From: Myxococcales bacterium
GTDB lineage: Bacteria > Myxococcota_A > Polyangia > Polyangiales > Polyangiaceae
Reading direction: 5' to 3'
Assembly (NCBI GenBank): GCA_013297655.1
Contig: JAAFHV010000030.1
Location: 1-51,158, forward strand
DNA length: 51,158 nucleotides
The notes beneath the pieces are model-generated. The model saw only the letters and a program-made list of their open reading frames with translations, made no database searches and was not told the origin of the DNA. Shown here one piece after another: positions 11,293 to 12,540 of the stretch. How positions within the stretch are numbered: position 1 is the first letter of the stretch; each line of letters begins with the position of its first letter. Position numbers and translations under genes: made by a program.

Positions 11293-11463
11293 CGCTCAAG
11301 AAAAGACGTCCTCGACGGTAGCGGCGGCGAAGGAGCGCTGAAGCCATTCTTTCAAGGTGGGGAGATCGGCGCGCGAGATGCGAGCGGCCACCTCGGGAGG
11401 AGTGGCCAACCCACGGGCGGCGAGTGAGGCGAGCAGCGCGCCGGCCATCGCCTGACGTCCCTG

Positions 11464-11607
11464 CTCGAGGCCCTTTTCGAGTCCCTGCTCGAGGCCCTTT
11501 TCGAGTCCTTGCTCGAGGCCCTTTTCGAGTCCTTGCTCGAGGCCCTTTTCGAGTCCTTGCTCGAGGCCCTTTTCGAGTCCTTGCTCGAGGCCCTGCTCGA
11601 GGCCTTC
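11464..11607 (-). repeat. 24-bp tandem repeat encoding (GLEQGLEK)n
   Basis: Five 24-bp units begin at 11464, 11488, 11512, 11536 and 11560, followed by a 12-bp half unit at 11584 and a degenerate unit from 11596. The first unit differs by one base; the next four look identical. It encodes an 8-residue amphipathic repeat in the Rpn-family gene. Such arrays expand and contract in whole in-frame units by slippage. Confidence 0.9.
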
Positions 11608-12235
11608 TTGCCAATACTTCTTGGCGAAATCGCCTTGGGGTTTGAATCGTTGCATCATGAGGTTCTCCAAAGCAGCACGCGCTGCGCCTGCGAGGGTGAC
11701 CGTAAGGAGATCGAAGTATAGCTCGCCGCGCGCGGTGAGGCCTTCGAGTGCGTTCAGTGCGCGAACGGCGGCCTCGGGGTCGGTCGGCCGCGCGAGTGAG
11801 GTGACGAGGGCGAGGGCGGGATGCTCCGGCCCGACCTGCAACTGTCCTATTTGCGCGAGCAGGCGGGGGCCCACGACGAGCGGAACGAACCGCGAGCCGC
11901 TCGGACGGATGCTCTCCGCGTCCTTGGCCCAAGCTTCGACCCGCTCGTCGAGGGTGAGCACGAGCACGGTCGCCGGAGCTTGGCCGCGGCGCGCGGCTTC
12001 GGATTCGTAGACGGGCCACGTCCAGCGCTTCGAATCGTCGATCTTGAGCTGAATCTCCAGGACCACGATCCACGCCGAACCGTCCGCATGGCGAAGCCGG
12101 ATGCACGCATCGGCCGCGAGCTCGGGCACCGATACGGAAGTAGGGAGCGCCCCCTCCACCGCGAGCCCCTCAACCGGAAATCCCGCGACGGGCAGCAAGT
12201 CGAGGAGAAAGCCCTCGTCGAGCTCGAAGAGGTAC

Positions 12236-12415
12236 TTAACAGCCCGTTGATTTACTCCCGTCGGCCAATCGCCGCCGCATCCCGACCGCCTTCGTTGCGA
12301 TCCTGCGGTGCGTGCTCACCTAGAAAACTAGGCTCCGCGCGCTCCTCGGATCGCGCCTCGGCGGATCGGGCGCGGACGACGACCGGCCTCGGTCCGTAAA
12401 TCAACGGGCTGTTAA
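12236..12415. mobile_element. 172-bp MITE-like palindromic element with TTAA target duplication
   Basis: Element 12240-12411. The left end CAGCCCGTTGATTTAC (12240-12255) and the right end (12396-12411) are perfect 16-bp inverted repeats starting CAG. Directly outside both ends is TTAA (12236-12239 and 12412-12415), consistent with a 4-bp target duplication. The interior is also an imperfect palindrome throughout, centred on CCTAG-AAAA-CTAGG (12319-12332), so the whole element can fold into one long hairpin. It encodes no transposase and would need one in trans. It disrupts the Rpn-family gene on the minus strand. Family unassigned. Confidence 0.85.
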
Positions 12416-12540
12416 GCGCTTCATGAAGCGGCGACGGCATGACGCCGGCATTGCGCGCGCCATGCCAGCCCGGAACCACGGGAAAACAAGCGCAGCGTGT
12501 CTCGCCTGCTGTCCCGGGCCAGAATGCGCGCCGTCCCGGG

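What the first reader, a model, noticed from the sequence alone, without database searches (positions are those of the whole stretch)
12236..12415. TTAA-flanked 172-bp hairpin MITE whose removal restores the Rpn-family reading frame
Perfect 16-bp terminal inverted repeats, TTAA on both sides, and full-length palindromy around CCTAG-AAAA-CTAGG. The insertion adds 176 bp; deleting it gives exactly 323 codons including stop, and the junction reads L-H-E-A-L-K-Y-L-F-E-L. This fixes the target, the duplication length and the original gene. TTAA duplication is uncommon for bacterial elements.
Basis: seen in the sequence. Interest (0 to 1): 0.8.

Follow-up and report, generated by a model that had tools for sequence, protein, structure and literature searches.

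The report
IS1182-type hairpin MITE interrupting gene
A 172-base non-coding mobile element has landed inside a gene of a soil myxobacterium, leaving a 4-base copy of its target on each side, and its interior is a conserved hairpin that also sits, without the mobile ends, just after the stop codons of dozens of other genes in the same genome.

Summary
Bases 12240-12411 are a 172-bp element with perfect 16-bp terminal inverted repeats (TIRs), flanked by TTAA on both sides, folding nearly end to end (z = -9.3). It is a real MITE. The genome holds about 20 related copies. Three paralogues of the interrupted gene align without a gap across the junction, and removing 176 bp restores 323 codons.

The target is not a TTAA speciality. 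Other copies show the duplication is 4 bp with consensus YTAR (TTAG/TTAG, CTAA/CTAA, CTGG/CTGG, CTAG/CTAG). In related genomes the same TIR class bounds complete 1.3-1.5 kb insertion sequences with an IS5/IS1182-type DDE transposase; IS1182-like elements ending CAGCCCGTGGAYCTA are closest. No such transposase was found in this draft genome, so the MITEs look orphaned.

Unexpectedly, the interior belongs to a large family of covarying hairpins, absent from Rfam. A model built only from hairpins at gene ends finds the MITE interior (E = 6e-9). In this genome 32 of 37 such hairpins begin right after the stop codon of a same-strand gene; none of 12 MITE copies do. The MITE is a new member of a known kind; the hairpin family is the part worth following. 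'Rpn family' is plausible, not proven.

The parts
12236..12239 (.). Left copy of the 4-bp target duplication, TTAA (YTAR class)
   Evidence: YTAR consensus from other copies
12240..12411 (.). 172-bp MITE with IS1182/IS5-type ends; no coding capacity recognised
12240..12255 (+). Left terminal inverted repeat CAGCCCGTTGATTTAC
12396..12411 (-). Right terminal inverted repeat, perfect inverse of the left
12412..12415 (.). Right copy of the target duplication, TTAA
12267..12388 (+). Extended hairpin matched end to end by a model built only from gene-end hairpins of this genome (R2, 42.7 bits, E 6e-9)
12294..12358 (+). Conserved hairpin core TGCGGTGCGTGCTCAC-CTAG-AAAA-CTAG-GCTCCGCGCGCTCCTCG, shared with hairpins of other Myxococcota genomes
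12319..12332 (+). Apical stem and loop CCTAG-AAAA-CTAGG; the stem varies in other copies with compensatory changes
12416..12440 (-). 5' piece of the interrupted gene (ATG at 12440; MPSPLHEA...)
11296..12235 (-). Remainder of the interrupted gene (candidate PD-(D/E)XK protein with C-terminal EQGLEKGL repeats); an open frame could restart at TTG 12198

Best explanation
The element is a non-autonomous DNA transposon (MITE). A DDE transposase of the IS5/IS1182 type recognised the CAG...-type terminal repeats in trans and inserted the element into a TTAA site, an instance of its YTAR target, duplicating the 4 bp and splitting the gene after codon 9. Shown: the ends, the target duplication, related copies, uninterrupted paralogues, and complete insertion sequences with the same class of ends in relatives. 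Inferred: that this transposase class moved it and that transposition was in trans; the enzyme is absent from the assembly, so the family is probably orphaned here.
For: Perfect TIRs, TTAA/TTAA and strong fold. Related copies in the same genome, one at 97%. Three paralogues (C101, C353, C501) align ungapped across the restored junction at 74-76% DNA identity; homologues elsewhere begin MPSxxHEA. TIR class with CTAG in 21 of 108 same-family genomes, against almost no matches for the reversed control pattern. Equal non-palindromic flanks TTAG/TTAG x4, CTAA/CTAA, CTGG/CTGG x2 besides many CTAG/CTAG establish a 4-bp YTAR duplication. All four complete NF033581 (IS5_4) transposase loci over the cut-off lie between such TIRs, with CTAA/CTAA, CTAG/CTAG x2 and CTAG/TTAG flanks; the G042 protein carries PF05598 and PF01609. 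IS1182-like elements with ends CAGCCCGTGGAYCTA show TTAG/TTAG and CTAG/CTAG. IS5 duplicates Py-T-A-Pu, mostly CTAG, also TTAA (PMC5493358); an IS1182 element with 4-bp repeats (PMC3281130) and 160-bp IS1182 MITEs with 4-bp repeats (PMC3852290) are published.
Against: No transposase of this type was found in the host assembly, though it is a 546-contig draft. Several older copies in this genome have unequal flanks, for example TTAG/CTAG at C530 and C507. The MITE shares little sequence with the complete elements beyond the ends. No close relative with an exact orthologous empty site was found; the empty-site evidence comes from paralogues.
Confidence: 0.9

Rival explanations
1. The element is a Tc1/mariner (IS630)-type MITE that duplicates only TA; the outermost A/G and T/C belong to the TIR.
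For: TTAG/CTAG and GTAG/CTAG copies fit TA plus a G...C-ended TIR without mutation; an IS630 transposase gene abuts the complete element in G042.
Against: TTAG/TTAG (five copies counting an IS1182 element), CTAA/CTAA and CTGG/CTGG have covarying first bases that only a 4-bp duplication explains simply. Every complete element found with these ends carries an IS5/IS1182-type transposase, not IS630.
Confidence: 0.06
2. The hairpin is a fixed regulatory or RNA element of this gene's 5' region, not an insertion; the real start lies downstream.
For: The downstream frame stays open and has a possible TTG start at 12198; the interior belongs to a conserved structured family.
Against: Three paralogues and many homologues have an uninterrupted N-terminus without the hairpin; the same element with the same ends is scattered at unrelated loci.
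Confidence: 0.03
3. An extension of the best explanation, not an alternative to it: the MITE arose when IS1182-type ends captured a pre-existing gene-end hairpin, so the conserved interior is cargo with its own cellular role, for example an mRNA 3' end structure.
For: A model from gene-end hairpins alone finds the MITE interior, full length, at 6e-9, and also hairpins with quite different ends in other genomes; 32 of 37 gene-end hairpins follow a stop codon in sense, MITE copies 0 of 12.
Against: The direction of capture is not shown; the gene-end hairpins could instead be decayed MITEs. The orientation bias is not seen in the sampled hairpins of other genomes (13 versus 10 of 23).
Confidence: 0.35

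Closest known systems
IS1182/IS5-family insertion sequences (NF033581 IS5_4; NF033551 IS1182) and their MITEs, e.g. the ISMac2-related MITEs
   Same: Same class of TIR (for the complete elements found here), 4-bp duplication with YTAR consensus, short non-coding derivatives in multiple copies
   Different: No autonomous partner in the host genome; interior is a conserved covarying hairpin and not recognisable internal IS sequence. The ISMac2 MITEs were compared by published length, copy number and repeat size only, not by sequence
E. coli IS5
   Same: 4-bp Py-T-A-Pu duplication, CTAG preferred, TTAA allowed (PMC5493358)
   Different: IS5 itself is a complete element with its own transposase; direct homology to it was not tested
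IS1272 (IS1182 family)
   Same: IS1182-family relative; the family is described as heterogeneous with some members targeting palindromes (PMC5678879)
   Different: IS1272 replaces inverted repeats and leaves no target duplication; these elements duplicate 4 bp
REP sequences of E. coli
   Same: Repeated hairpins, a share of them close after stop codons; REPs within 15 nt of a stop can lower translation (PMC12306157)
   Different: The hairpins here are about 125 nt with invariant internal loops and 37 consensus pairs; no RAYT link was tested

Membership tests
MITE (non-autonomous DNA transposon) | Short element with terminal inverted repeats and no transposase gene | tested here: met
   172 bp, 16-bp perfect TIRs; only mechanical ORFs overlap it, none a transposase
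MITE (non-autonomous DNA transposon) | Multiple dispersed copies | tested here: met
MITE (non-autonomous DNA transposon) | Target-site duplication and a demonstrable empty site | tested here: met
   TTAA/TTAA; ungapped paralogues
MITE (non-autonomous DNA transposon) | Autonomous partner with the same ends | tested here: inconclusive
   Complete IS with the same class of ends in relatives; none in this genome
IS5/IS1182-derived MITE | 4-bp YTAR target duplication | tested here: met
   published consensus PMC5493358, PMC10359306
IS5/IS1182-derived MITE | Ends shared with elements encoding IS5/IS1182 DDE transposases | tested here: met
   match is at class level (13 of 15 positions with the IS1182-like end)
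IS5/IS1182-derived MITE | Mobilised by that transposase | not testable with these tools
   Needs a transposition assay
IS630/Tc1-mariner MITE | 2-bp TA duplication only | tested here: not met
   Covarying 4-bp flanks
Rpn family (interrupted gene) | Match to a curated Rpn or PD-(D/E)XK profile | tested here: not met
   No Pfam or NCBIfam match for the 183-aa core
Rpn family (interrupted gene) | PD-(D/E)XK fold | tested here: inconclusive
   Invariant D30, E48, Q50, K57; the best PDB matches include many such nucleases but all have E > 0.04
Known structured RNA family (hairpin interior) | Match to an Rfam 15 family | tested here: not met

The most novel reading that the evidence does not exclude
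The interior of the MITE is a member of an undescribed family of about 125-nt covarying hairpins of Myxococcota that, in this genome, attach in sense orientation directly after stop codons of ordinary genes (such as RecR, H+-pyrophosphatase and a FabH-like synthase) and act as an mRNA 3'-end or translation-end structure; different mobile ends, including IS1182-type ones, have captured or spread it.
Probability: 0.35. Interest if true: 0.75.

Novelty: new variant of a known kind. Interest (0 to 1): 0.5.

Why it matters
As a MITE it documents an IS1182-type element family in Myxococcota with a clean insertion and empty site. The hairpin it carries is more important: it is conserved in structure across genera, missing from Rfam, abundant (60 matches in this genome), placed with near-codon precision after stop codons in one orientation, and shared with a mobile element. 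That gives a directly testable case of a mobile element and a gene-end structure sharing one nucleic-acid fold, in a group where transcript ends are, to my knowledge, poorly understood.

Tried and rejected
Looked for an autonomous partner in the own genome with PF13751, NF033581 and the G042 transposase: none. Exact 27-base end pattern in 84,980 named genomes: none. TA-only duplication: considered because of TTAG/CTAG copies, rejected on covarying 4-bp flanks. Fixed-structure reading of the hairpin: rejected by paralogues. Integron-like cassette reading of the gene-end hairpins: judged unlikely because several upstream genes are ordinary housekeeping-type functions such as RecR and H+-pyrophosphatase; no attC search was run. 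Intrinsic terminator reading: no consistent T-run after the hairpins by eye, not formally tested. Rfam: nothing. The inverted-repeat finder did not list the 16-bp TIR; it was verified directly. Literature searches found no description of these repeats in myxobacteria within the held library.

Full report
OBSERVATION. The window carries TTAA (12236-12239), CAGCCCGTTGATTTAC (12240-12255), a self-complementary interior, the perfect inverse of the first 16 bases (12396-12411) and TTAA again (12412-12415). The strand folds at -63.9 kcal/mol, z -9.3 against dinucleotide shuffles. The element lies in the 5' part of a minus-strand gene. Taking out 176 bp gives a single frame of 323 codons including stop, MPSPLHEALKYLFEL..., while the occupied gene stops after 62 codons inside the element.

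EMPTY SITE. The same genome has three paralogues (contigs C101, C353, C501) that align with the restored gene across the junction without any gap, at 74-76% identity; where this gene has CTTAAG they have CTCAAG. Homologues in other genomes of the family begin MPSxxHEA and have no hairpin there. The insertion is therefore real and the target was TTAA.

FAMILY IN THE GENOME. With the 180 bases as query the own genome gives 35 matching pieces at roughly 20 loci; the C530 copy is 97% identical over its full length. The ends occur in inverted pairs 151-316 bp apart. Longer copies contain a 29-base module, GTCCCTCGTCAGGGACTTCCAAGGGTCGT, in an arm and near the tip.

TARGET. This copy cannot by itself distinguish a TTAA duplication from TA plus an A-ended TIR. 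In related genomes the same TIR class gives TTAG/TTAG (four loci), CTAA/CTAA, CTGG/CTGG (two) and many CTAG/CTAG, so the duplication is 4 bp and its consensus YTAR. Some older copies have unequal flanks, e.g. TTAG/CTAG, which I take as decay or exchange between copies. E. coli IS5 duplicates Py-T-A-Pu, most often CTAG, with TTAA also recorded (PMC5493358; PMC10359306).

AUTONOMOUS RELATIVES. The pattern CTAGCAGSCYGYTGAAAAA (one mismatch) is found in 21 of 108 genomes of the family, with almost no matches for the reversed control. In G042 it bounds a 1,407-bp element with a 386-aa transposase (NF033581 263 bits; PF05598, PF01609). A search with NF033581 over 108 genomes finds four complete proteins over the cut-off (G042, G048, G073, G074), and all four lie between such TIRs; G048 has the non-palindromic duplication CTAA/CTAA. 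IS1182-like elements of genus g43 (514-aa protein, best match NF033551 at 180 bits, below its 270-bit cut-off) end in CAGCCCGTGGAYCTA, closest to the window's ends, with TTAG/TTAG and CTAG/CTAG at two of three loci. Nothing of this type was found in the host genome. IS1182 elements and 160-bp IS1182 MITEs with 4-bp repeats are published (PMC3281130; PMC3852290). So the element is a new family of a known kind.

INTERRUPTED GENE. 'Rpn' is not supported by Pfam or NCBIfam. The alignment of 28 relatives keeps D30, E48, Q50 and K57, and the predicted model (mean pLDDT 82.7) weakly matches PD-(D/E)XK nucleases, none below E 0.04. Plausible, not shown.

THE HAIRPIN INTERIOR. DNA comparison with 108 genomes unexpectedly returned the centre of the element and not its ends. 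The core TGCGGTGCGTGCTCAC...GCTCCGCGCGCTCCTCG recurs in Polyangiaceae, Sandaracinaceae and other MAGs (51 stretches), with different outer arms and ends. In 25 sequences 9 of 18 consensus pairs have compensatory changes, while the TCA/CTCC internal loop is nearly invariant. These sequences were partly chosen by a pattern, so the invariance of the core is overstated there; the outer pairs were not chosen.

Model R1 built from them finds 60 matches in the own genome and matches in 31 of 108 genomes. In the own genome, besides the MITEs, there is a second class without these TIRs. Of 37 scored, 32 have an open frame of at least 120 codons ending in a stop on the 5' side, 27 of those 32 with the stop 27-34 nt before the model start, i.e. 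directly where the hairpin begins; the 3' side gives 9 antisense, and of discordant cases 23 to 0 favour the 5' side (p 2e-7). MITE copies: 0 of 12. A codon-usage gene call agrees for most loci; that script stopped early on an N run. In 23 hairpins from other genomes the bias is absent (13 versus 10). Upstream genes include RecR, H+-pyrophosphatase, a FabH-like synthase and a metallophosphatase.

Twenty-one gene-end hairpins align over 133 columns with 37 consensus pairs, 20 of them with compensatory changes. Model R2, built from these alone, finds the window at 12267-12388 (+) with 42.7 bits, E 6e-9, and hairpins with unrelated ends in other genomes. E-values are rough because calibration was shortened, and long GC-rich hairpins may score generously; the complete IS loci and the rest of the window gave no match.

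MECHANISM. Shown: insertion, 4-bp duplication, copies, end class. Inferred: movement in trans by an IS1182/IS5-type transposase, now lost or unassembled. Inferred, less certain: the interior is not random filler but a conserved nucleic-acid structure that in this genome also marks gene ends; whether the MITE captured it or spawned it is open.

Noticed in passing
Own-genome loci L374-L391, L412-L427: A family of about 125-nt covarying hairpins directly after stop codons of same-strand genes, absent from Rfam; 20 of 37 consensus pairs with compensatory changes.
   Followed up: partly
L039, L040, L042, L044-L046, L201 (own genome): A 29-base module GTCCCTCGTCAGGGACTTCCAAGGGTCGT (16-base near-palindrome at its head) is inserted in an arm and near the tip of longer MITE copies, and a variant with TTGCGGGCCTGTAGCG also occurs. 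Not present in the window.
   Followed up: partly
L153 and L154 (G054:C19:34471, G054:C35:29193): Two loci consist of almost nothing but two TIRs head to head (30 bp between CTAG duplications), apparently a minimal form of this element class.
   Followed up: no
L312 (G086): An IS1182-like element has CTAA on the left and TTAG on the right, reverse complements of each other and not a direct duplication.
   Followed up: no
G048 contig ends (e.g. L150-L152, L229-L238): 141-bp elements of the same TIR class lie at very many contig ends of this genome, suggesting high copy number that breaks the assembly.
   Followed up: no
L205, L210 (own genome C200, C301): Two MITE-type ends begin exactly at a TAG stop codon inside a CTAG target, so insertion there would keep the stop.
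   Followed up: no
window 11455-11615: The interrupted gene encodes a run of EQGLEKGL repeats from 24-base tandem repeats near its C-terminus, predicted as one long helix.
   Followed up: no
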